This document shows positions 1 through 10,517 of a stretch of 12,274 nt of DNA, one piece after another. The stretch is from the NCBI GenBank assembly GCA_002320935.1, contig DCLG01000050.1, positions 63,959-76,232 on the forward strand, given 5' to 3'. Positions within the stretch are counted from its first letter, which is position 1. Each line of letters opens with the position of its first letter. The notes beneath the pieces were generated by a model that worked only from the letters and a program-made list of their open reading frames with translations, was not told the origin of the DNA and did no database searches. The translations under genes were made by a program, and so were the position numbers. This DNA is from Pedobacter sp. UBA1654. GTDB lineage: Bacteria > Bacteroidota > Bacteroidia > Sphingobacteriales > Sphingobacteriaceae.

Positions 1-2150
1 AAATGTATAAGAGCTCTGCGCCGCAGCAGAATCATAATTTAAATCTGTCCGGAGGGGGCAACAATATGAACTACTATGCCTCCTATTCCTTCCTTAAAGA
101 AGGCGGTTTGATTACGGGCGACGCATTCAATGCAAACCGTCATAACGCCAGGTTGCGCGTGAGTTCAACATTGTTTGACAGATTGCAATTAGATGCGAAT
201 CTGGGCTATGTTGATCGCTTGGTGACAGGTTCAAGTGCTGGCATTGCTGCAGGTAGCGGCGTGCTCTATACCTCGCATGTGATTTCGCCGCTGGTACCTG
301 TTCGCTTCACTACAGGTGGATGGGGTTATCTGGGCGGGTCTGCTAACCCGGTGGCCATTGCAACTGACGGTGGTACCAACGATTTCAGCTCACAAGAGCT
401 TACCGGTAACCTGCAGGCCACATTAAACATCACGCCAGACTTGCGCGTAAAAGGTCAGTATGGATTGGTAAAGTCAAATTCTTTAAGACAAATCTTCAAT
501 AAGACAATTAACTACTATAGTCCGATAGATAATTCGCTTATCTACATGACCAATAATCCCAACAAGATCGACAACAGGGATTACACATCGACCTACCAGA
601 CTTTCATCGCGACTGCGGAGTATGAAAAAACATTCGCAGAAAAGCACTACATCAAAGCATTGGCAGGTGCTTCATCGGAAGAGAATAGCAACACGTACCT
701 GCTTGCAAGCAGAACCAATGTGCCTACGCAGGATGTTGGAAGTATAAACCTGGGAACACTGAATCAACTGAATGACAGCGAAGCTTCACAGAATGCGCTG
801 CAATCTCTATTTGGTCGCTTGAACTACAGCTTTAAGGAAAAATACCTTTTGGAAGGTAACTTCAGGTACGACGGATCATCGAGATTCGCACCAGATCTTA
901 GATGGAATACTTTCCTTTCCGGATCTGCCGGATGGGTTTTTTCCAAGGAGCAATTCTTTGAGCCTTTGCAGAACATCATCAGCTTTGGTAAAATCAGAGC
1001 ATCCTATGGAACACAAGGTAATGATAAGGTTGGCTCAGATTTTGCCTATATCGCTTCGATAAATTCAGTTGGAACGATGCCAATCGGTAATGTCATCACG
1101 CTTGGATACAGACAAACGGGAATTCCAAATCAGTGGTTAACCTGGGAATCCGTAGTAAAGCAGGATATTGGTATCGACCTGACCATGCTGAACAACCGTT
1201 TAAGTCTTACGGCAGACTATTATAAGAATACCACCAACAACATCCTGTTGGAAGTACCATTGCCAGATGTGCTTGGAACCGGATATCCGCCACAGAATGC
1301 CGGTAAGGTAGAAAACAAAGGTTGGGAGCTACAAGTTGGATGGCAGGATAACATCAGAGCGTTTACCTACGGCTTCAACTTCAACCTCTCTGATGTGCGA
1401 AATAAAGTATTGAGCCTTGGTGATGCACCAGCAACAGTGGGCGACCGCGTAAGAACCGTTGGCCATCCTATTGATGCTTTCTACGGCTTTGTTGCCGATC
1501 GCATCAGTCAGGTGTCTGATTATACGCTTGATCCGGTTACGAACAACTACACCCCTAACTTTCCGTATGATGCAAGTTATCCAATGCAGCCTGGGGATAT
1601 CAAGTTCCGTGACCTGAACGGTGATGGAAGAATAACCCCTGCAGATGACCGCCAGGTAATTGGAAGTCACATTCCACGTTATACCTACGGTCTGAGAGGA
1701 AACTTTGGGTACAAAGGAGTAGACCTAAGTTTCTTTTTCCAGGGGGTAGGACAGGCTGACGGGCTAATTACAGGAGGTGCAAGACATGCACTGATCAATG
1801 ACAGCTCAAATCCGCAAGCCATACACCTTAACCGCTGGACGCCAACAAACACCAATGCGAGCTATCCAAGATTAGCCTACGGCTACAGCTACAACCAACG
1901 TCTATCGACATACTGGTTAGAGGACGCTTCCTATTTACGATTGAAAAACGTCCAGGTAGGCTATACACTTCCTAAATCCCTTACAGAGAAACTGCGTATC
2001 GACAGGCTGAGGGTGTACGCCTCGGCTGACAACCTATTCACCAGCACCAATTATTTCTATGGTTACGACCCGGAAACACCTGTTTCATCCGGCGGATTTT
2101 ACCCACAGGTAAAAACATTCATTTTTGGTCTGAACATCAATTTTAAATAA
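1..2150 (+). CDS. SusC/RagA-family TonB-linked outer-membrane transporter, C-terminal part (5' end outside window)
   Basis: The reading frame is open at the left edge, so the ATG at position 3 is internal and not the true start. About 715 residues are visible, whereas SusC proteins usually have about 1000-1100. The signal peptide, carboxypeptidase-regulatory-like domain, TonB box and most of the plug are therefore missing from view. What is visible is the C-terminal beta-barrel: alternating aromatic/polar strands, the SusC-typical segment around residues 530-580 with DLNGDG (about residue 537) followed by a YTYGLRGNFGYKG strand, and a terminal strand ending FIFGLNINFK with the aromatic residue needed for barrel assembly. 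In the family, SusC forms the outer-membrane pore that imports oligosaccharides with energy from TonB, capped by SusD. The susD start lies 2 nt after the stop, so the two genes are surely co-transcribed. The substrate cannot be read from this part. The family assignment is very secure. Confidence 0.96.
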   Translation, partial: MYKSSAPQQNHNLNLSGGGNNMNYYASYSFLKEGGLITGDAFNANRHNARLRVSSTLFDRLQLDANLGYVDRLVTGSSAGIAAGSGVLYTSHVISPLVPVRFTTGGWGYLGGSANPVAIATDGGTNDFSSQELTGNLQATLNITPDLRVKGQYGLVKSNSLRQIFNKTINYYSPIDNSLIYMTNNPNKIDNRDYTSTYQTFIATAEYEKTFAEKHYIKALAGASSEENSNTYLLASRTNVPTQDVGSINLGTLNQLNDSEASQNALQSLFGRLNYSFKEKYLLEGNFRYDGSSRFAPDLRWNTFLSGSAGWVFSKEQFFEPLQNIISFGKIRASYGTQGNDKVGSDFAYIASINSVGTMPIGNVITLGYRQTGIPNQWLTWESVVKQDIGIDLTMLNNRLSLTADYYKNTTNNILLEVPLPDVLGTGYPPQNAGKVENKGWELQVGWQDNIRAFTYGFNFNLSDVRNKVLSLGDAPATVGDRVRTVGHPIDAFYGFVADRISQVSDYTLDPVTNNYTPNFPYDASYPMQPGDIKFRDLNGDGRITPADDRQVIGSHIPRYTYGLRGNFGYKGVDLSFFFQGVGQADGLITGGARHALINDSSNPQAIHLNRWTPTNTNASYPRLAYGYSYNQRLSTYWLEDASYLRLKNVQVGYTLPKSLTEKLRIDRLRVYASADNLFTSTNYFYGYDPETPVSSGGFYPQVKTFIFGLNINFK

Positions 2151-2152
2151 AC

Positions 2153-3808
2153 ATGAAGAAGCAATTTACATATATGATGCTTAGCCTGGCTCTGGTTGCC
2201 AGCTCATGCAAAAAAGACTTTTTAGATCGCCAGCCTTTAGACACCATTTCAGACGAAACTTTCTGGAATACAGAAGAACAGCTGATCCTGGCGGTAAACG
2301 GCTTATACGCCAACATCAAGAACAACAATACGGTCGCCTTGGACCAAATGGGAGATAACAGCATCAACTCCTCTACTGGTGATAGCTACAGAATATTCAG
2401 CAGCGGGAACTTCGGAGCTGATCTTTCCTCTGTAGATGCAGAATGGAGGAGCCAGTTTGCTGGAATCCGCCAGTGTAATGTTTTTCTGGAGAACTATAAT
2501 AAAGCAACTGGCGTTAGCCAGCAGAAAAGAGATCAGATGGCAGGGGAGGCTAAAACTATCCGTGCATACATGTACATGAACCTGGTATGTTACTTTGGCG
2601 ATCTTCCGATTGTTACGAAACCGCTGAATATTGATGAAGTCTATGAGCCAAGAAGCCCTCGAAAAGAAGTAATTGATTTTATCATTAAGGAACTTGATGA
2701 AGCTGCGGCAATGATGCAGGCAGCACCACAAACCGGTGCTGCGCTCGGGCGCTTAAGCAAAGCCGCTCCACTTGCATTCAAATCCAGAATAGCCATGTTC
2801 GACAGCAGATGGGCCGAGGCAGAAAAAGCAGCAAAAGAAGTCATGGATCTGGGTGTATACAGCTTGTACTCAACTGGAAATCCTGAAGTTGATTATAACA
2901 ACCTTTTTAATTACAAGGGAAAATTATCTGCAGGTGCGAACAAAGAGACTATCGTTGCCAGAATGAATCTTGCTGATATCAGCATGCACAACATTAGCAG
3001 GGAGTCACAGGTGCCGGATCAGGCATCGCGATACAACCCAACAAAGTCGCTTGTAGATGCTTACTTGTGTGTTGATGGCTTGCCGATCGACAAATCGCCG
3101 CTCTATAAGGAAGATAGCTACGCAGCCCTGTTTGAAAACCGCGACCCGCGCATGAAGCAGACAATCCTTGCACCAGGAGCAGCATGGGGTGGGCGTCGCG
3201 ACGGCAATCCCGCAAATACCAACCCTGCCATATTCACCGCACCCAAGTTTGTTTCCGATAAGTTGGGCTCCGTAACCATCACGGGTTATTACTTCACCAA
3301 ATATGTTGAGGTGAGTGCTGTATCACAAGTATCCAGAGATCACAATGATATCCATGTTATGCGTCTTGGCGAAGTGTTGCTTAACTATGCAGAAGCAAAA
3401 ATGGAGCAGGGTACCCTTACGCAAGCCGACCTTGATTTAACCATTAACAAACTTCGTGATCGTGTAGGCATGCGTCACATGATACTTACGGAACTTGCAG
3501 AGAATGGTCTGGATCTGCGCACTGAGATCAGAAGAGAGCGCCGTGTAGAGTTGGCAAGGGAAGGTCAGCGCTGGTATGATATCATCCGCTGGAAACAGGG
3601 TGCATTGCTTGGTGCCGATGTAAAAGGCATGAAGAAGTCGCTCGCCGTTGTGCCTGCCCATGTAAGTAATATCGCTGCAGATGCGGATGGTTACATCGTT
3701 GTAATGACGGGCCGCCAGTTTGATGAAAACAAGCACTATTTGTGGCCAGTGCCATTGAACCAGCTTCAACGAAACCCTAACTTAGGACAAAACCCAGGCT
3801 GGAACTAA
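2153..3808 (+). CDS. SusD/RagB-family nutrient-binding outer-membrane lipoprotein
   Basis: This is a full-length SusD partner (551 residues, a normal family length) of the preceding SusC. The N-terminus is a lipoprotein signal: hydrophobic MMLSLALVASS followed by Cys19, with KKDFLD directly after, the usual SusD start. The N-terminal half (about residues 20-220) carries the TPR-like helical scaffold (for example NGLYANIKNNN and AKTIRAYMYMNLVCYFGDLP). The C-terminal half carries the SusD_RagB signatures RLGEVLLNYAEA, the RRERRVELAREGQRWYDIIRW helix region, and the tail WPVPLNQLQRNPNLGQNPGW. The protein should sit on the cell surface as a lid over SusC and capture glycan. The ATG at 2153 is 2 nt after the susC stop, and it is the only start that gives the intact lipoprotein signal. 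The downstream EEP gene begins 12 nt later, which suggests one operon. The C-terminal coding end shares a 13-nt identity (3788-3800) with the susD relic at 5936-5948. Confidence 0.96.
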   Translation: MKKQFTYMMLSLALVASSCKKDFLDRQPLDTISDETFWNTEEQLILAVNGLYANIKNNNTVALDQMGDNSINSSTGDSYRIFSSGNFGADLSSVDAEWRSQFAGIRQCNVFLENYNKATGVSQQKRDQMAGEAKTIRAYMYMNLVCYFGDLPIVTKPLNIDEVYEPRSPRKEVIDFIIKELDEAAAMMQAAPQTGAALGRLSKAAPLAFKSRIAMFDSRWAEAEKAAKEVMDLGVYSLYSTGNPEVDYNNLFNYKGKLSAGANKETIVARMNLADISMHNISRESQVPDQASRYNPTKSLVDAYLCVDGLPIDKSPLYKEDSYAALFENRDPRMKQTILAPGAAWGGRRDGNPANTNPAIFTAPKFVSDKLGSVTITGYYFTKYVEVSAVSQVSRDHNDIHVMRLGEVLLNYAEAKMEQGTLTQADLDLTINKLRDRVGMRHMILTELAENGLDLRTEIRRERRVELAREGQRWYDIIRWKQGALLGADVKGMKKSLAVVPAHVSNIAADADGYIVVMTGRQFDENKHYLWPVPLNQLQRNPNLGQNPGWN

Positions 3809-3820
3809 AATCGTGTCATC

Positions 3821-4636
3821 ATGATGAAAATATTCAAACACATCGGATTACTGAGCAGCATGATGTTGCTGCTCAGTTGTTCAGAAAAACTGCGTCAGAC
3901 AGATACAGCTGATGTAAGCTCGCTAAAGGTGATGTCCTATAACATTCACCACGCAAATCCACCGTCAGTGCCTGGCAAGATCGATCTTGATGCGATCGCG
4001 AAGGTCATCAGCGATCAAAAGCCAGATCTGGTCGCCTTGCAGGAAGTGGATGTGAATACCGGACGATCAGGGAAAATCAACGAGGCAAGTCTGCTGGCCT
4101 CTAAGCTGGGCATGAAGGGTTTCTTTTTCGCTAAGGCCATTGATCATGATGGTGGTGATTATGGAGTGGCCATACTTTCCAGGTATCCGCTTACGGACAA
4201 TCAGATCCACAGGCTTCCTACCCAGCAAGACACAAAAGGAGAACCCCGGGTGCTGGCAACCGTACAGGTTAACCTGCCTGGCGGTAAAAAATTACGTTTT
4301 GGAAGCACACACCTCGACGCGCAAAAGAACGATACCAACAGGCTGCTCCAGGTGGTCGAGATCAACAGGATCGCAGCACAGGAAAAGCTGCCGTTTATCA
4401 TCGCTGGCGACCTTAATGCGACGCCAGAAAGCGCCGTTATCAAGTTGTTTGATGAACAGTTTACGCGTACCTGCAGCGATTGTGCATTTACCATTCCGGT
4501 AATCAATCCGACCAAAACGATCGACTTCATTGGCTACAGCAAGAACAGCAATCTGGAAGTTGTAAGTCATGAAGTCATTCCAGAGCGGTATGCATCAGAT
4601 CATTTGCCTATTGTGTCCATTTTTAAGCTGAAATAG
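3821..4636 (+). CDS. Endonuclease/exonuclease/phosphatase (EEP) superfamily lipoprotein
   Basis: A 271-residue metal-dependent phosphodiesterase/phosphatase-fold protein. The superfamily motifs appear in order: MSYNIHH (Asn41), LQEVD (Glu75), GVAILSR, STHLD (His164), AGDLNATP (Asp197, Asn199), IDFI (Asp235) and SDHLPI (Asp260-His261). All the usual catalytic and Mg2+-binding positions are present, so an active enzyme is expected. The N-terminus is a lipoprotein signal with LLLS-Cys20, which places it in the periplasm or at the outer membrane. A start at the second Met (3824) would give Cys19 and is equally plausible. The superfamily covers DNases, inositol-phosphate phosphatases, sphingomyelinases and related phosphodiesterases, and the substrate cannot be told from sequence. 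It lies 12 nt after susD, so co-expression with the SusC/SusD pair is likely. This could mean a phosphate-bearing ligand for the system, but that is inference. Confidence 0.93.
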   Translation: MMKIFKHIGLLSSMMLLLSCSEKLRQTDTADVSSLKVMSYNIHHANPPSVPGKIDLDAIAKVISDQKPDLVALQEVDVNTGRSGKINEASLLASKLGMKGFFFAKAIDHDGGDYGVAILSRYPLTDNQIHRLPTQQDTKGEPRVLATVQVNLPGGKKLRFGSTHLDAQKNDTNRLLQVVEINRIAAQEKLPFIIAGDLNATPESAVIKLFDEQFTRTCSDCAFTIPVINPTKTIDFIGYSKNSNLEVVSHEVIPERYASDHLPIVSIFKLK

Positions 4637-4692
4637 CCGATCCAGCCGATTCAAACAATCGTCTTCAATTATCGTTTACATAGCTAAAAGAA

Positions 4693-5466
4693 ATGATTAT
4701 GAAACTGAAAATTGCATTCGCAGCCTTAATGCTCTCCACCTGCAGCTATTATGCACAGGCACAGCAACCCACATTGCCTGTTCCAGAACGTGTAAATGTA
4801 AAAGGTGGCGAGCTGACCATTCAGCCGATAACCCATGCAACGCTTGTTCTAAACTATCAGAATAAGAATATCTACGTAGACCCTACTGGAGGAGCAGAGG
4901 CGTTCACCGGACTTGGAACACCACACGTAATCCTGATCACAGATATCCACGGGGATCATTTTGATAAGAAAACCATTGAGGCCATCAACAAAACAGACGC
5001 AACCTTAATCGTGCCACAAGCCGTAGCAGATTCACTTCCTGCAACCATAAACAAACAAAAACTTGTGATCCTGAAGAACGGGGCTAAAACCACGCAGGCT
5101 GGTGTTTCTATTTTAGCAGTGCCGATGTACAACCTTCCAAATGCGGAAAACGCGAAGTTCCACCCAAAAGGCAGGGGTAATGGCTACATTCTTGAGATCG
5201 GTGGCAAAAGAATTTACATATCCGGAGATACGGCAGATACACCAGAAATGCGAGCTTTAAAAAACATAGATATGGCTTTTGTTTGCATGAACCTGCCATA
5301 TACGATGGACGTTAATGCTGCAGCATCTGCAGTGCTGGCATTTAAGCCGAAAGTTGTTTACCCTTATCATTACCGCGGACAGGATGTTGAAGCATTTAAA
5401 AAGCAGGTAAATGATGGGGATAAGAATATTGAGGTGAAAGTGCTTCAGTGGTATCCAGGAAGCTAA
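4693..5466 (+). CDS. Secreted metallo-beta-lactamase-fold hydrolase (UlaG-like/L-ascorbate-lactonase-type)
   Basis: A 257-residue MBL-fold protein. It has a signal peptide (AFAALMLSTCSYYAQAQ, cleavage probably after residue 23), so it should be periplasmic. Metal-binding motifs are visible: ITDIHGDHFD gives the HxDH core (His86, Asp88, His89), a further His157 in KFHPKGRGNGY, Asp179 in YISGDT, and a late His226 in YPYHYRGQD. A strand-turn with THATLVLNY and IYVDP precedes them, as in the UlaG/YcjG-like branch. That branch includes lactonases and many uncharacterized hydrolases, and the real substrate is unknown. The start could also be the Met at 4699 (MKLKIAF), which still leaves a good signal. 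The gene is 56 nt after the EEP gene and probably in the same transcript. Its stop overlaps by a few bases the ancestral stop of the convergent regulator relic on the minus strand. Confidence 0.9.
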   Translation: MIMKLKIAFAALMLSTCSYYAQAQQPTLPVPERVNVKGGELTIQPITHATLVLNYQNKNIYVDPTGGAEAFTGLGTPHVILITDIHGDHFDKKTIEAINKTDATLIVPQAVADSLPATINKQKLVILKNGAKTTQAGVSILAVPMYNLPNAENAKFHPKGRGNGYILEIGGKRIYISGDTADTPEMRALKNIDMAFVCMNLPYTMDVNAAASAVLAFKPKVVYPYHYRGQDVEAFKKQVNDGDKNIEVKVLQWYPGS

Positions 5467-5875
5467 TCCGCTTTAAATTCTGAGAAGAAATCAAATAAAC
5501 TTACTTCTGCCGGTATCTGTAACTTCTTGCGAAGTCGGTACCGGCTTATCTACCCCGCGTGGTGAGATCTTCATCAACTCCGCAATCTCTTTAGTAGATA
5601 AACCCAACTTCAGATAAGCCGCCAGCTTCATATCATTAGAGGTCAAATTGCCGTACAGATTTTAACTCCTCCAGGAAGTTTGCATGTACTTTATTGAAGT
5701 AAATGGAGAATTGTTCCCAGCCCTCTGCTGATTTTTCCTCGGACGAGAGCAACCTGATGATCTTTCTTAAATTGTAAAGATTTTCATCCGAAGGAATATT
5801 GGTGTTCAGCTTGCTTAGATCGTGCTTTATCTTAGTAAGCAAATCTTCCTTTTGAACCAGATGCATGGAAGTAGA
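5463..5875 (-). pseudogene. Decayed C-terminus of a LuxR-type HTH transcriptional regulator
   Basis: The minus strand encodes, in three successive frames, the C-terminal end typical of the long Bacteroidota sensor/regulators that end in a LuxR-type HTH. Frame one (5875 down to about 5660) reads SMHLVQKEDLLTKI and then WEQFSIYFNKVHANFLEELK. Frame two (about 5659 to 5545) gives the HTH: LYGNLTSNDMKLAAYL, GLSTKEIAELMKIS and PRGVDK. Frame three (about 5544 to 5463) gives RYRLRKKL and a short tail ending FSEFKAD plus stop. Each switch is explained by the loss of 2 nt. The N-terminal sensor part is absent altogether. The longest unbroken piece, 5636-5881, would start at GTG and gives only 81 residues. 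Such regulators usually control a neighbouring susC/susD pair. It cannot bind DNA in this state. The homology is recognized by eye; the family assignment is strong, the exact parent less so. Confidence 0.85.
5509..5545. repeat. Quasi-palindromic hairpin inside the regulator relic
   Basis: The outer arms GCCGGTA (5509-5515) and TACCGGC (5539-5545) are exact complements. Inside them ACTTC (5522-5526) and GAAGT (5531-5535) pair around a TTGC loop, leaving small internal bulges. No T-run follows on either strand, so it is not an obvious intrinsic terminator. It encodes part of the RYRLRKKL region of the decayed HTH, and one of the two frameshifts maps onto its right arm. It may be incidental to coding, or it may have promoted the mutation. 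Confidence 0.5.
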
Positions 5876-5953
5876 GAACACTATAATCTATTACCAATTC
5901 CACAGATTGAAATGGAACGAAATGACAAACTCGTTCAAAACCCAGGCTACTAA
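5876..5953 (+). pseudogene. 3' remnant of a second susD gene
   Basis: Read on the plus strand in one frame, this stretch gives the classic SusD C-terminus: EHYN, then LLPIPQIEMERND, then KLVQNPGY and a TAA stop at 5951-5953. Compare the intact SusD of this window, which ends HYLWPVPLNQLQRNPNLGQNPGW. The relic keeps the conserved P-x-P, the RN and the QNPG, but it differs enough (LLPIPQIE; terminal Y) to come from another susD and not from a fresh local duplication. Upstream of about 5876 the frame runs into the antisense strand of the regulator relic and all similarity to SusD stops. The glycoside hydrolase gene starts 50 nt after the stop, which matches the normal place for a first enzyme gene after a susC/susD pair. 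Confidence 0.82.
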
Positions 5954-6003
5954 TACGCTCGCTGAGGGTAGCAGCAGCTGGCCTCATTTCCTAAACTAAA
6001 ATT

Positions 6004-7290
6004 ATGAAGCTAAAAAATTTATTGTTTACAGCAGTTGCATGCACCCTTCCTTTTATACTGAATGCACAACAACACCTTAAAGGTCCTGTAAAAGTAGAGG
6101 TAAAAAAGAATGGTAATGCCTATCAGTTGCTGCGAAATGGACAACCTTATTTCATTAAAGGGGCTGGCGGCACCAGTTACCTGAGTCGTATTGCCGCTTA
6201 TGGTGGAAACTCCATAAGAACATGGGGCACCAAAGATGCACAGCAAATCCTGGATTCAGCTCAAAAACATGGCCTCACGGTGCTGATGGGCTTAGGGGTT
6301 GTGCCAGAAAGACATGGATTCAACTATGATGACGCTGACGCGGTGAAAAAGCAGTTTGAACGTGTCAAGGCAGACGTTATCAAGTTTAAGAACCACCCTG
6401 CATTGCTGGCCTGGGGAATCGGTAATGAACTTAACTTGTCGTACAAGAATCCCAAAGTATGGGATGCAGTGAACGACATTGCTAAGATGATTCACCAGGA
6501 AGACCCGAATCATCCGGCAAGTACCGTATTGGCCGGCATCAATAAGCGGGAAATTGATTACATCAAGACCAATACACCTGCCATCGATATTCTTGCAATT
6601 AACACCTATGGCGGACTTGCAGCGCTACCTGAACAGGTAAAAGCAACAGGTTGGACGGGACCATACTTGGTAACCGAATGGGGCCCAACCGGTCATTGGG
6701 AAGGTCTGCAAACGACCTGGAACGCGCCGATAGAAGAAACGAGCAGTGAAAAGGCTGCTGTGTATAAAAGCAGGTATGCCTTTTCCGTAGAACGGGATAC
6801 ATTAAACTGCCTGGGTTCCTACGTATTTTTATGGGGTCAGAAGCAGGAAAGAACACCAACCTGGTACGGCGTATTCACAGAAAGTGGGGAAGAATCTGAG
6901 GTGGTGGATGTAATGCAGTACCTCTGGTCGGGCGCTTACCCTAAAAACAAGTCGCCACACATCTATGCTTTTCACCTAAACGGTAAAAAGGCGGTAAATA
7001 GCATCCAGTTAAAAGCAGCAACCAAATATCCGGTTTTTGTTGATGCTGCTGATCCGGACAGAGACCCATTAACTTACCATTATGAACTGCTGGCTGAGGC
7101 CACCAATGTTGGTGAAGGCGGAGATCATGAAGATCGTCCAAAAGCCATTCCTACAAACCTGGATAACCTTAAAACCAACACGGTACAAATTACCTCACCA
7201 AATGCCAAAGGCGCGTATCGCTTGTTCGTATACGTTAGAGACGGCAATAATAATGTCGCAACAGCAAACATTCCCTTTTACGTAAACTAA
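6004..7290 (+). CDS. Secreted clan GH-A glycoside hydrolase (GH2-like TIM barrel) with C-terminal Ig-like domain
   Basis: A 428-residue enzyme with a Sec signal peptide (cleavage probably after LNA, residue 21). After a short entry strand (QLLRNGQPYFIKGAGG) comes a TIM barrel with GGNSIRTWG, a stretch ending in HGLTVLMGLG, the acid/base motif AWGIGNEL (Glu142) and the nucleophile motif YLVTEWGPTG (Glu225). The two glutamates, 83 residues apart, mark a retaining clan GH-A hydrolase. Residues from about 330 to 428, with DAADPDRDPLTYHYEL and a final YRLFVYVRDGNNNVA strand, look like an Ig/cadherin-like beta-sandwich. Proteins like this are often labelled 'GH2 TIM-barrel' but lack the GH2 N-terminal sandwich domains. 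A GH158-like beta-1,3-glucanase is an alternative I cannot exclude. The GH16 gene starts 27 nt later, so both probably share a transcript and act on beta-glucan. No Bacteroidota-type promoter (TAnnTTTG) is visible just upstream. Confidence in a GH-A hydrolase is high, in its family moderate. Confidence 0.87.
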   Translation: MKLKNLLFTAVACTLPFILNAQQHLKGPVKVEVKKNGNAYQLLRNGQPYFIKGAGGTSYLSRIAAYGGNSIRTWGTKDAQQILDSAQKHGLTVLMGLGVVPERHGFNYDDADAVKKQFERVKADVIKFKNHPALLAWGIGNELNLSYKNPKVWDAVNDIAKMIHQEDPNHPASTVLAGINKREIDYIKTNTPAIDILAINTYGGLAALPEQVKATGWTGPYLVTEWGPTGHWEGLQTTWNAPIEETSSEKAAVYKSRYAFSVERDTLNCLGSYVFLWGQKQERTPTWYGVFTESGEESEVVDVMQYLWSGAYPKNKSPHIYAFHLNGKKAVNSIQLKAATKYPVFVDAADPDRDPLTYHYELLAEATNVGEGGDHEDRPKAIPTNLDNLKTNTVQITSPNAKGAYRLFVYVRDGNNNVATANIPFYVN

Positions 7291-7317
7291 AAAGAAGCCT
7301 TTAATAAATACAATATC

Positions 7318-8418
7318 ATGAAACCAATTATAGTTGCCACAAATAAACTGCTGCTTTTACTCCTGTTTACACTTACGGTATCTTGCTCCAAGGCAGAGCA
7401 TGCACCTGCATCGCTTAACCTGCAATTGGCTGTTGAGGTTACAAATGATGGCTCCGGTGTGGTAGCTGTTACCGCAACTGCAAACAATGCAGACCGGTAT
7501 TATTTCACATTCGGTAAAAGTAGCAACGAGGAAGGTCTTCGATCAACCGTTGGGAAAGCTTCAGTAACTTATACCAGTAGTGGAAAATACACCATTAAGG
7601 TCACTGCTTACGGACCCGGCAATACCGCTGCGGTAGCAACAAAAGACGTTGATGTGGTGGTTGCGATGAAAGATGAAGGCTATGTAAGTGCCGAAAGCTA
7701 TCCCGGTATGAAACTGGTGTGGAAAGATGAGTTTAGTGGTAATGCACTGAACACTGCCGATTGGAGCTTTGAGCTTGGCAATGGTATCGATGGCTGGGGA
7801 AATGCTGAACTGCAATACTACAGAGCGGAAAATACTAGTGTTAAAGATGGCTATCTCACCATTACAGCAAAGAAAGAAGCCTTGGGAGGTTATCAATACA
7901 CGTCTTCCAGAATCAAAACCCAATACAAAAAGGCCTTTAAGTACGGGAGGATAGATATACGTGCTAAATTACCAAAAGGTCAGGGCATATGGCCCGCTTT
8001 ATGGATGCTGGGCGCCAATATCGATGATGTAAAGTGGCCTTATTGTGGTGAAATTGATATTATGGAGCTTGTTGGTGGTGGTCCGGGAAAGGACAATACC
8101 GTATATGGAACCATCCATTTTGACAACAATGGTTCTTATGCCAACATCAGCAAACCTTATACATTGCCGACTGGAGACTTCTCAGAGAAGTTCCATGTTT
8201 TTTCGATCCTATGGGACGAGCAGAAGATCAGCTGGTTTGTCGATGATGTTGAGTTTCATAGCCAGGAAATCACTTCCGCTGAACGCAAGGAATTCCAGGA
8301 ACCTTACTTCCTGTTGTTTAACCTCGCTGTAGGTGGCAGGTGGCCAGGTAGTCCTGATGCAACAACCACTTTCCCGCAGCAAATGACGGTTGACTATGTA
8401 AAGGTCTTTCAGAAATAA
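7318..8418 (+). CDS. GH16-family endo-beta-1,3-glucanase (laminarinase-like) lipoprotein
   Basis: A 366-residue lipoprotein. The signal LLLLLLFTLTVS leads to Cys23. Residues about 30-118 form a PKD-like beta-sandwich, seen in FTFGKSS and SSGKYTIKVTAYGPG. From about residue 130 the GH16 jelly roll begins with MKLVWKDEFSG. Its landmarks are WGNAELQYY, YGRIDIRAKLPKGQGIWPALWMLG and the catalytic ExDxxE site in CGEIDIMELVG (nucleophile Glu245, Asp247, acid/base Glu250), then YGTIHF, and finally VGGRWPGSPDATTTFPQQM with YVKVFQK at the C-terminus. NAELQYY plus this form of the catalytic site is characteristic of laminarinase-type GH16, which cleaves beta-1,3 or mixed beta-1,3/1,4-glucans internally. 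Being a lipoprotein, it may sit at the cell surface. It follows the GH-A gene by 27 nt and is ended by the hairpin terminator 3 nt downstream. No oddities seen; complete. Confidence 0.95.
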   Translation: MKPIIVATNKLLLLLLFTLTVSCSKAEHAPASLNLQLAVEVTNDGSGVVAVTATANNADRYYFTFGKSSNEEGLRSTVGKASVTYTSSGKYTIKVTAYGPGNTAAVATKDVDVVVAMKDEGYVSAESYPGMKLVWKDEFSGNALNTADWSFELGNGIDGWGNAELQYYRAENTSVKDGYLTITAKKEALGGYQYTSSRIKTQYKKAFKYGRIDIRAKLPKGQGIWPALWMLGANIDDVKWPYCGEIDIMELVGGGPGKDNTVYGTIHFDNNGSYANISKPYTLPTGDFSEKFHVFSILWDEQKISWFVDDVEFHSQEITSAERKEFQEPYFLLFNLAVGGRWPGSPDATTTFPQQMTVDYVKVFQK

Positions 8419-8420
8419 CA

Positions 8421-8454
8421 AAAAAACCGGCAGCGGTAAACTGCCGGTTTTTTT
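8421..8454. terminator. Bidirectional intrinsic terminator between convergent genes
   Basis: A perfect 13-bp stem: AAAAAACCGGCAG (8421-8433) pairs with CTGCCGGTTTTTT (8441-8453) around a 7-nt loop. Seven Ts follow the GC core on the plus strand, and the A-run becomes a T-run on the minus strand. It begins 2 nt after the GH16 stop and reaches the stop codon of the convergent DUF922-like gene, so it can stop transcripts from both sides. Confidence 0.93.
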
Positions 8455-9541
8455 ATTGCTTCAGTTCTTTGTCTATCCTGTTGTTCCAGGCATCCTGCGC
8501 AAACCTGTTAATGCCATGCCTGGTTTCATCATCATACGCCTTTTGCATGGCGTTCATGTCTCGATATGAATCCAGGTACTGCATGTTCAGCAATGCTTCA
8601 TAGTTGTCTGGGGTTAGCTTTTTAGCCAGCATCTTCTTCTTAAACTGCTCGGCAATGATTTTAGCGATATCAAAATGCCGCTGTTCATGGTTCAGGTAAT
8701 AATCATTGCGGTCTGAAGGGTTCGCCCAGCAGGCACTTTTCGGAACGTAAGCTTTCACTGCTACATGCACCTTTAGTACACCATTCTCCAGGTCTGCTTC
8801 CTGAACATAGCCAAAGCTGGGCATTACAGATGCCTGGAAATTTCCTGATATCCTGATCTTAGAATGGAAGTCTGCCCAGGTTAAGGGCCGCTTTGGATCG
8901 TAATAGATGGTGTCACCCTCCTTACTTTCCTTAAAATCTGTAAAACTTATTTTAACGGATTTAGCCAGCCTGCGGTCCCAGCCCAAGTTCTCCTCCATCC
9001 AGCTGTCGAAATACTTAAGCCCGGTGCTAAGCAATTGTCGCACATTCCTTTCTACTGATGCGGTACCTGCTAAACTTCTTCGATAGCGCAAATTACCCGG
9101 GTAGGTGATTAAAGGCTCCACGCCATAGTCCTTATCCAGTCCGAAGGACAATCTCAGGTTAATCTGCCCATCCACGCTATTGCTGCTTACAGCCGTTTCG
9201 GAGATTTTGAACTGCTCAATACCAATAATGACGGCCTTGCCGGAGGTCTGCTTCGGCAAGTTCTTATCCAAAAACTGCTTTATGGCCAACGCTGTACCAC
9301 CTTGAAGGTTCATGAGTTGTGCTTGCGGTTTATTGGCTGTGTTCTTTATAATGATTTCTGCCGGCTTGCTTTTATCAGCGCGATTATCCTTTACTCCAGC
9401 AATGTAAAAACCAGTAGGTTTTAGTGCAATGGCTTCATCGGTCAGAACGAGCTGCCCGTAAGCGGTGAAGGTGGTAAATAGGAAGCTGATGATGGTAAGG
9501 AGCAAGCGGCAGGCGGTTGTTTTGTTGCTTGTCTCTCTCAT
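8453..9541 (-). CDS. Secreted DUF922-like putative zinc metalloprotease (HExxH)
   Basis: A 362-residue protein with an N-terminal hydrophobic signal (LLLTIISFLFTTFTAYGQ, cleavage probably around residue 29). The C-terminal part resembles the DUF922 family: YDPKRPLTWADFHSKI (about 214-229), then NHEQRHFDIAKI with a zincin-type HExxH motif (His285, Glu286, His289), and YDDETRHGINRFAQDAW (337-352), whose Glu339/His342 could supply a further ligand. The family is regarded as predicted secreted zinc-dependent proteases, and activity is inferred from the motif only. Residues about 30-185 form a separate N-terminal region with alternating strands (AGVKDNRADKSKP, KAVIIGIEQFKIS, INLRLSFGL) and a C-terminal helix (VRQLLSTGLKYFDSWMEEN). 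I do not recognize it with certainty. The gene is convergent with GH16 and shares its terminator. It lies downstream of, but is separated by a terminator from, the DUF3494 gene. The ATG at 9541 is chosen because it gives the signal peptide. Confidence 0.8.
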   Translation of the reverse strand: MRETSNKTTACRLLLTIISFLFTTFTAYGQLVLTDEAIALKPTGFYIAGVKDNRADKSKPAEIIIKNTANKPQAQLMNLQGGTALAIKQFLDKNLPKQTSGKAVIIGIEQFKISETAVSSNSVDGQINLRLSFGLDKDYGVEPLITYPGNLRYRRSLAGTASVERNVRQLLSTGLKYFDSWMEENLGWDRRLAKSVKISFTDFKESKEGDTIYYDPKRPLTWADFHSKIRISGNFQASVMPSFGYVQEADLENGVLKVHVAVKAYVPKSACWANPSDRNDYYLNHEQRHFDIAKIIAEQFKKKMLAKKLTPDNYEALLNMQYLDSYRDMNAMQKAYDDETRHGINRFAQDAWNNRIDKELKQ

Positions 9542-9617
9542 ACTCAGGTACCTATAACGCAGTTCGTATGCCCATATTATATGCTTAAATAAATATGTAT
9601 CTGGTCTCAGCTCCTAA

Positions 9618-9651
9618 ACAAGAAATGCCCGCAGCTTTTAAGCCCGGGCAT
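9618..9651 (-). terminator. Likely intrinsic terminator of the DUF3494 gene
   Basis: ATGCCCG (9625-9631) pairs with CGGGCAT (9645-9651). Inside it GCTT (9634-9637) pairs with AAGC (9640-9643), making an almost continuous hairpin. Read on the minus strand, the stem is followed by TTTCTTGTTT, an interrupted T-run. It lies 33 nt beyond the stop of the minus-strand DUF3494 gene. This suggests that the DUF922-like gene downstream has its own promoter, somewhere in 9542-9620; I could not identify it. Confidence 0.6.
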
Positions 9652-9683
9652 CTCAATTAAAATATTTCTTTTAAAGCTTTATA

Positions 9684-10517
9684 CTAATTAGGCATATTCA
9701 CTGTACTGGCATTTAGCGTTACAGCGGTTTGTGCAAATAGTTTTCCGGTAACAAATGCACCTGTATTCAGAGCGATTAAGCTTTTGCTTAAAATGGTTCC
9801 GCAAAGATGACTGTTGGTTCCAAGTACTGCCTGACCAGCTACCACCCATGTGATGTTTTTAGCTTTAGCACCACCTGTTAACTTGATTCTTGCGCCGCTA
9901 CCTAAGGTTAGATCTCCAGCAATTTGAAAAACCCATTTGTCATCCGGACCACCAGCAAGCGTAAGGCCGGCTTCTGAAATTAAAAGACCTGTTGACCATT
10001 TGTAAATACCAGGTGTTAATCTGCGACCACTAATGTCGCCATTATTTGCCTCTAAAACCGGTGTTGGTAAACTTAAGCCATTGGCTGTAGTATACGCAGC
10101 TTCCATATTGTTGATTGCGTCAGTTAACATTGCAGGCGTTGGTGTTCCATAATCCGTTGCATAAACTTTTCCGGTCACGAACGGACTGGTTGAAAATTGA
10201 TTGCTCTCATCCATGGTCAGTGCAAATCCGGTAATGGCAGTTGCTGCAATTGGACTTACGCCAATATTTCCCTGAATTGCTGTCTTTCCAGTCGTCGTAA
10301 TCCCTGCTTTTGCAAGAATCGTAAAGCCTGCAGCTGTGCCTAAATCAAGTTGGGTAGAACCGGTCGTTTGATCGCCAGTTGCACTGCCATTTTCTACAGC
10401 CTTGGACGTGTTTTCCGTATTTTCTTTTTTACATCCTGAGCCTATTGCAAGTACAATAAGCAGGGAGCAAAATGTTGTACGGATTGTTTTGCTGCGGATT
10501 TGTGTAGCGTTTATCAT
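9684..10517 (-). CDS. DUF3494 ice-binding-protein-like lipoprotein
   Basis: A 277-residue lipoprotein. The signal sequence LLIVLAIGSG ends at Cys29, followed by KKENTE and a Thr/Ser/Gly-rich linker (about 33-56). The rest (about 57-273) is a single DUF3494 (IBP-1 type) beta-solenoid domain. Its signatures are LGTAAGFTILAKAGITTTG, NIGVSPIAATAITGF, GDISGRRLTPGIYKW, WVFQIAGDLTLGSGARI, NITWVVAGQAVLG and CGTILSKSLIALNTGAFVTGKL. Characterized members bind ice crystals or inhibit recrystallization. Many others are adhesins or have no known ice activity, so the function here is a family-based inference. The lipid anchor suggests that it stays on the cell envelope and is not released. The ATG at 10517 is preceded by 298 nt of non-coding DNA shared with the divergent CLC gene. 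There is no functional link to the beta-glucan genes. It hints at a cold, seasonal or freezing habitat. Confidence 0.92.
   Translation of the reverse strand: MINATQIRSKTIRTTFCSLLIVLAIGSGCKKENTENTSKAVENGSATGDQTTGSTQLDLGTAAGFTILAKAGITTTGKTAIQGNIGVSPIAATAITGFALTMDESNQFSTSPFVTGKVYATDYGTPTPAMLTDAINNMEAAYTTANGLSLPTPVLEANNGDISGRRLTPGIYKWSTGLLISEAGLTLAGGPDDKWVFQIAGDLTLGSGARIKLTGGAKAKNITWVVAGQAVLGTNSHLCGTILSKSLIALNTGAFVTGKLFAQTAVTLNASTVNMPN

What the first reader, a model, noticed from the sequence alone, without database searches (positions are those of the whole stretch)
5463..5953. Deletion scar joining a LuxR-regulator tail head-on to a susD tail
Seen in sequence: the minus strand up to about 5875 carries the C-terminal end of a LuxR-type regulator, and the plus strand from about 5876 carries the last codons of a SusD (LLPIPQIEMERND, then LVQNPGY and stop). 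Known: in Bacteroidota loci such a regulator often lies divergent to susC-susD, with enzymes after susD. Inferred: one deletion of roughly 6-8 kb (regulator N-terminus, susC, most of susD) fused the two ends and left the GH-A and GH16 genes without their own transporter. The window thus holds two ancestral loci collapsed side by side: an intact transporter with EEP/MBL genes, and glucanases whose transporter is gone.
Basis: partly seen in the sequence, partly recalled or inferred. Interest (0 to 1): 0.72.

Follow-up and report, generated by a model that had tools for sequence, protein, structure and literature searches.

The report
Deletion scar in a glucan-uptake locus
A bacterium related to Pedobacter appears to have lost about 8 kb from a beta-glucan feeding locus: the sensor and the sugar importer are reduced to fused stubs while the two glucan-cutting enzyme genes remain. 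This is a clean, recent example of ordinary gene loss.

Summary
Window 5463-5875 (minus) is the last ~139 codons of a triple-Y/LuxR-type regulator, and 5876-5953 (plus) the last 25 codons plus stop of a SusD. Pedobacter quisquiliarum (L001), the closest named relative found, is colinear on both sides and has the full version: EEP-MBL-<regulator(979 aa)-PKD protein-SusC-SusD-GH158-GH16-DUF922-ice-binding-CLC. Relative to it the window lacks ~8.19 kb, with 1-2 bases of microhomology. All 11 loci (of 80 fetched) with a close GH16 directly behind GH158 keep the whole set; none of 145 genomes of that genus showed a match across the junction. Two corrections: the regulator stub also carries two frameshifts with almost no missense decay, so its loss is recent; and EEP-MBL already abuts the intact regulator in P. 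quisquiliarum, so two loci were not collapsed together. The remaining GH158 and GH16, the enzyme pair of a beta-1,3-glucan locus, have intact frames but no sensor, promoter region or importer of their own; they are probably silent or dependent on read-through from SusC-SusD-EEP-MBL. No second record of the junction was found, so an assembly error is unlikely but not excluded. Ordinary locus erosion; low interest.

The parts
3..2150 (+). SusC-like TonB-dependent transporter of the neighbouring locus (N-terminus outside the window)
   Evidence: TIGR04056 OMP_RagA_SusC E 3e-175, profile 281-981/981
2153..3808 (+). SusD-like lipoprotein of the neighbouring locus, intact
   Evidence: SusD_RagB E 1.5e-52
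3821..4636 (+). EEP-family protein, intact; follows SusC-SusD in 6 of 6 relatives read
   Evidence: Exo_endo_phos E 5e-25; synteny
4693..5466 (+). MBL-fold hydrolase, intact; left neighbour of the scar
   Evidence: Lactamase_B_3 E 2e-17; 88% identical and same place in L001
5463..5875 (-). Remnant of a triple-Y/LuxR-type regulator: last ~139 of ~979 codons, in three frames (5654-5875, 5548-5643, 5472-5546), stop at 5463-5465
   Evidence: intact orthologue L001 1259-4198
5875..5876 (.). Deletion junction; lacks the equivalent of ~8.19 kb of L001 (about 1679 to 9871)
   Evidence: alignments of both sides; no match crossing it in 145 genomes
5876..5953 (+). SusD remnant: last 25 codons and stop (chance mini-frame from 5861, 30 aa)
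   Evidence: SusD_RagB positions 272-297/297, E 4e-6
6004..7290 (+). GH158 glucanase homologue, open frame intact, catalytic residues kept (N141, E142, E225)
   Evidence: Matches GH158 structure 9oro (E 2e-102) and 6pal (E 8e-85)
7318..8418 (+). GH16 glucanase, likely lipoprotein, open frame intact
   Evidence: Glyco_hydro_16 E 2e-27; 86% identical to L001 GH16; lipoprotein is by eye from the N-terminus

Best explanation
This is the scar of a recent ~8.2-kb chromosomal deletion inside a beta-1,3-glucan-type utilization locus of a Pedobacter-like bacterium. Shown by comparison: L001 has a divergent regulator and a PKD-protein/SusC/SusD/GH158/GH16 row between the MBL gene and the DUF922 gene, and the window has only the outer ends of that stretch. 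It lacks the first ~840 of 979 regulator codons, the divergent intergenic region, the PKD gene, SusC and the first ~528 of 554 SusD codons. Inferred: the ancestor had the long form; the break was joined with little or no sequence homology (1-2 bases); the regulator stub then took, or already carried, two frameshifts. GH158 and GH16 lost their sensor, promoter region and cognate importer, and are either silent or transcribed by read-through from the upstream SusC-SusD-EEP-MBL genes.
For: L001 is colinear on both sides, from EEP and MBL to CLC, with the full set of genes in between. Homology to the two ends stops at the same window base, 5875/5876, leaving L001 1679-9871 without counterpart. The 11 of 80 fetched loci with a close GH16 directly behind GH158 all carry long open frames for regulator, PKD gene, SusC and SusD (11 of 11). 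None of the 33 match rows from 145 genomes crosses the joint. The regulator stub has two frameshifts in ~0.4 kb while the other nine genes are open. Within it pN is 0.039 against pS 0.73, and of 131 residues compared with 26 relatives only one is unique to the window and one more is shared with just two of them, so it was a working gene until recently.
Against: No second record of the same junction was found, and the window's own genome is not held, so the reads cannot be checked. One search scored only the 4 best first-look candidates per genome. One deletion cannot be told from several overlapping ones. Loss of expression is inferred from position only.
Confidence: 0.92

Rival explanations
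1. Assembly or binning artefact: two pieces of a contig, or of two strains, were joined wrongly, and the organism has the full locus.
For: The window's source genome is not held and the junction was found in no other sequence that I could search. The joint has only 1-2 bases of overlap.
Against: A misjoin usually needs a shared repeat (general knowledge), and the alignments show no more than 1-2 shared bases at the joint (no separate repeat search was run). The stub also has two frameshifts not expected in a working regulator, while nine neighbouring genes are open; by uniform chance both would fall in the stub with p about 0.001. Flanks on both sides match one L001-like lineage at 74-88% protein identity.
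Confidence: 0.06
2. The short junction is the older state, and regulator, PKD gene, SusC and SusD were inserted in the relatives.
For: 40 of 80 GH158 loci show no SusC/SusD hit with the window's proteins (14 of these 40 are shorter than 15 kb), so GH158 without a linked importer is common in the wider family.
Against: The window holds the very C-terminal ends of the regulator and SusD genes, in place and ending at their own stops. An insertion would not leave these ends behind. All 11 loci with a close GH16 directly behind GH158 have the long form.
Confidence: 0.01
3. A variant of the best explanation, not exclusive of it: the regulator was first inactivated by its frameshifts, the locus fell silent, and the deletion followed.
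For: Both frameshifts lie in or just before the DNA-binding end, which would be enough to silence the locus.
Against: No intermediate is known. The order cannot be read from one sequence.
Confidence: 0.3

Closest known systems
Intact GH158/GH16 locus of Pedobacter quisquiliarum CGMCC 1.15343 (NZ_BMIL01000002, L001)
   Same: Same genes in the same order on both flanks (EEP, MBL, GH158, GH16, DUF922, ice-binding, CLC); same regulator and SusD ends
   Different: Has full regulator, PKD gene, SusC and SusD; lacks the SusC-SusD pair left of EEP, where other genes lie
[quoted passage not shown]
   Same: SusC/SusD homologues with GH16 and GH158, described there as a set for beta-1,3-glucans
   Different: The Bacteroides locus has a hybrid two-component regulator, SGBP-B and GH3; the Pedobacter version has a triple-Y/LuxR-type regulator and a PKD protein, and the window has lost regulator and importer
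Residual PUL gene clusters in Bacteroides strains that lost mucin use (PMC8845570, passages seen)
   Same: Loss of a polysaccharide trait with gene clusters left behind
   Different: In the passages seen, inferred from transcriptomes and pangenomes across strains; no base-level scar was described in them

Membership tests
Polysaccharide utilization locus (working PUL) for GH158+GH16 | Adjacent susC-susD pair of its own | tested here: not met
   Only the last 25 SusD codons remain before GH158; the upstream SusC/SusD pair is only 32%/29% identical to the L001 pair and belongs to a SusC-SusD-EEP module
Polysaccharide utilization locus (working PUL) for GH158+GH16 | Linked sensor/regulator | tested here: not met
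   Regulator reduced to a frameshifted C-terminal stub
GH158 (endo-beta-1,3-glucanase, clan GH-A) | Sequence relation over the whole TIM barrel and Ig-like domain | tested here: met
   9oro residues 21-423 and 6pal residues 5-405 matched
GH158 (endo-beta-1,3-glucanase, clan GH-A) | Catalytic Asn/Glu pair and Glu nucleophile (N136, E137, E220 of BuGH158; PMC7157763 passages) | tested here: met
   Window N141, E142, E225 in the alignment; that 6pal is BuGH158 is recalled
GH158 (endo-beta-1,3-glucanase, clan GH-A) | Activity on beta-1,3-glucan | not testable with these tools
   No assay
Pseudogene by deletion | Intact orthologue in the same place in relatives | tested here: met
   L001 with both flanks; the gene set itself in 11 of 11 loci checked
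Pseudogene by deletion | Further disabling changes in the remnant | tested here: met
   Two frameshifts in ~0.4 kb; the other nine genes are open

The most novel reading that the evidence does not exclude
Operon capture with reciprocal importer loss. The ancestor of the window and P. quisquiliarum had two neighbouring SusC-SusD pairs; the window lost the glucan pair and P. quisquiliarum lost the EEP pair. In the window the deletion brought GH158-GH16 onto the same strand 537 bases behind SusC-SusD-EEP-MBL with no recognised terminator or promoter between, so the enzymes may now be driven and served by the other importer.
Probability: 0.1. Interest if true: 0.5.

Novelty: new member of a known kind. 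Interest (0 to 1): 0.22.

Why it matters
It gives a base-level, recent and well-polarised example of how a glycan-use locus can erode: sensor and importer gone while the enzymes survive. It also warns that GH genes next to a SusC/SusD pair in a contig may not belong to that pair: here a caller working by neighbourhood would assign GH158/GH16 to the wrong importer. Otherwise it is ordinary gene loss.

Tried and rejected
Intact conspecific copy: I looked for SusD and regulator proteins whose ends equal the window's stubs. Of the 120 SusD relatives listed (of 6422 matches), the best tail matched 23 of 25 residues (P0002). Of the 25 regulators compared (P0121-P0145, of 120 listed and 3919 matches), the best matched 127 of 131 residues (P0125). 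So no copy from the window's own species was identified.

Junction in other records: no exact match in the IMG/VR scan and no match crossing it in 145 genomes of the genus.

Promoter and terminator scans of 5300-6150 gave nothing above chance; the Bacteroidota -7 motif TAnnTTTG (recalled) is absent from 5467-6003 on the plus strand, where about 0.25 would be expected by chance. These tests are weak for this phylum.

Relaxed selection on GH158 after the deletion: Tajima-type counts give more changes on the window branch than on six sister proteins (of 21 in the alignment). With L001 as outgroup, 18-33 against 6-9 (chi-square 3.8-13.7); with L002, 16-28 against 5-9 (chi-square 2.0-11.1). The closest sister P0241 is not clearly different (3.8 and 2.0). 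The regulator stub gives only 2-5 against 1-4 over five relatives and two outgroups, too few to tell. No other gene of the window had sister sequences as a control, so I draw no conclusion.

Corrected on checking: I first counted two replacements unique to the window in the stub by eye; the recount gives one, plus one shared with two relatives. The odds did not need changing.

Literature: six term searches. In their listings I saw no paper on this Pedobacter locus; no claim of absence from print beyond these searches. One search (all four terms together) gave 0 papers.

Full report
Check of the observation. The minus strand from 5875 down to 5463 encodes the end of a LuxR-type regulator. It is not one open frame: the protein runs through three frames, 5654-5875, 5548-5643 and 5472-5546. 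Aligned with the intact gene of L001 the window is 2 nt shorter at each of two places. The LuxR-like part hits GerE weakly alone (E 4e-4) and better with the pieces joined by X (E 1e-5); the other two pieces alone hit nothing in Pfam. The plus strand 5876-5953 is a SusD end: Pfam SusD_RagB positions 272-297 of 297, E 4e-6, and 25 codons aligned to the L001 SusD end with 22 identical residues. An in-frame ATG at 5861 inside the regulator part makes a chance 30-aa frame.

What the full version looks like. L001, Pedobacter quisquiliarum, is colinear with the window on both sides: EEP, MBL to the left and GH-A, GH16, DUF922, ice-binding, CLC to the right (74-88% protein identity). Between MBL and GH-A it has a 979-aa regulator on the minus strand (Reg_prop, Y_Y_Y, GerE), a 278-aa PKD-domain protein, a 1018-aa SusC and a 554-aa SusD. 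Of the 80 loci, the 11 that have a close GH16 (56% or more) directly behind GH-A (L001-L004, L006, L008-L012, L058) were checked in full: 11 of 11 have long open frames for regulator (959-1054 aa), PKD protein (271-321), SusC (1014-1021) and SusD (554-574). Only L001 among them also has the EEP and MBL genes at the left. Against the rarity of the find, 40 of the 80 loci showed no SusC/SusD hit with the window's proteins as queries, 14 of these on stretches under 15 kb, so a GH158 gene without a linked importer is not rare in itself.

The joint. Homology to the L001 regulator ends at window 5875 (L001 1678), and homology to the L001 SusD starts at window 5875/5876 (L001 9872). About 8.19 kb is missing: roughly 840 regulator codons, the divergent intergenic region, the PKD gene, SusC and ~528 SusD codons. 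The overlap is one base against L001, two if the ancestor had the base seen in L002 and L058 at that place. In the genus of P. quisquiliarum, 30 of 145 genomes gave 33 matches to 5467-6003; all end at or before query base 410 or start at or after 415, so none crosses the joint (the 4 best candidates per genome were scored).

Age. Synonymous sites between window and L001 are saturated or nearly so (pS 0.61-0.80 in the seven intact genes compared). The regulator stub has pN 0.039 against 0.07-0.16 in those seven genes; part of that is because a DNA-binding end is conserved anyway. Of 131 stub residues set against 26 relatives (L001 and 25 of the 120 listed), one is unique to the window (Asp for Glu) and one more is shared with only two relatives. 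So the gene was under selection until shortly before the present, yet it has two frameshifts, while the nine other genes are open. If indels were random errors over ~11.5 kb of coding sequence, both would fall in this 0.4 kb with a chance of about 0.001. Closer relatives than L001 are known to me only as proteins. A GH158 protein 89% identical to the window's (P0245) and a full 972-aa regulator (P0123) both report a single contig of 40,647 bases, so they probably sit on one contig, and that relative keeps the regulator. The loss is then younger than that split (inference).

The left neighbour. SusC-SusD-EEP is a module of its own: 6 of 6 close SusD relatives read (of 44 genomes with a match among 399 searched) have EEP directly after SusD. 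The MBL gene is separate elsewhere: 0 of 6 loci read have SusC, SusD or EEP in the 14 kb around it. In P. quisquiliarum EEP-MBL abuts the regulator, but left of EEP lie an FRG-like and other genes and metG, not SusC/SusD (FRG and metG named by eye), and that genome's best match to the window's SusD is the GH-locus SusD itself at 33%. So the two loci were neighbours before the deletion. P. quisquiliarum has probably lost the other importer, though that it never had it is not excluded.

Function. The GH-A gene is a GH158 homologue: 9oro (named GH158) E 2e-102 and 6pal E 8e-85. The catalytic Asn-Glu and Glu named for BuGH158 in PMC7157763 (passages seen; that 6pal is BuGH158 is recalled) are kept as N141, E142 and E225. 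The same paper describes GH16 and GH158 with SusC/SusD homologues as a beta(1,3)-glucan locus. The enzyme genes in the window are therefore probably sound, but sensor, importer and the divergent promoter region are gone. A Bacteroidota -7-like TACATTTG lies in that region of L001 at 4292, and none lies in window 5467-6003 (motif recalled). No terminator-like site was found between MBL and GH158, so read-through is possible but untested.

Known or new. Residual loci after loss of a polysaccharide trait are described (PMC8845570, passages seen). This case is a clear, recent and well-placed example, not a new kind of thing.

Noticed in passing
L085 3720-12191 (P. quisquiliarum, left of EEP): Where the window has SusC-SusD, P. 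quisquiliarum has an FRG-like protein, an ATPase-like protein in two frames and other small genes before metG: perhaps a defence-type island that replaced the importer (named by eye).
   Followed up: partly
window 6004-7290: GH158 has more changes on the window branch than on six metagenomic sister proteins (16-33 against 5-9 over two outgroups; not clear against the closest, P0241); no control gene was available.
   Followed up: partly
L144 6595-8628: In another genome of the genus the MBL gene stands tail to tail with a GH158-like gene, with no importer hit in the 14 kb read, hinting at a repeated link between these two genes.
   Followed up: no
window 9684-10517: An ice-binding-like protein (Pfam PF11999) lies two genes behind the glucanases, conserved in place in P. 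quisquiliarum.
   Followed up: no
window 5463-5466: The stop codons of MBL (plus) and of the regulator stub (minus) overlap by 2 bases; in L001 the genes are 43 bases apart.
   Followed up: no
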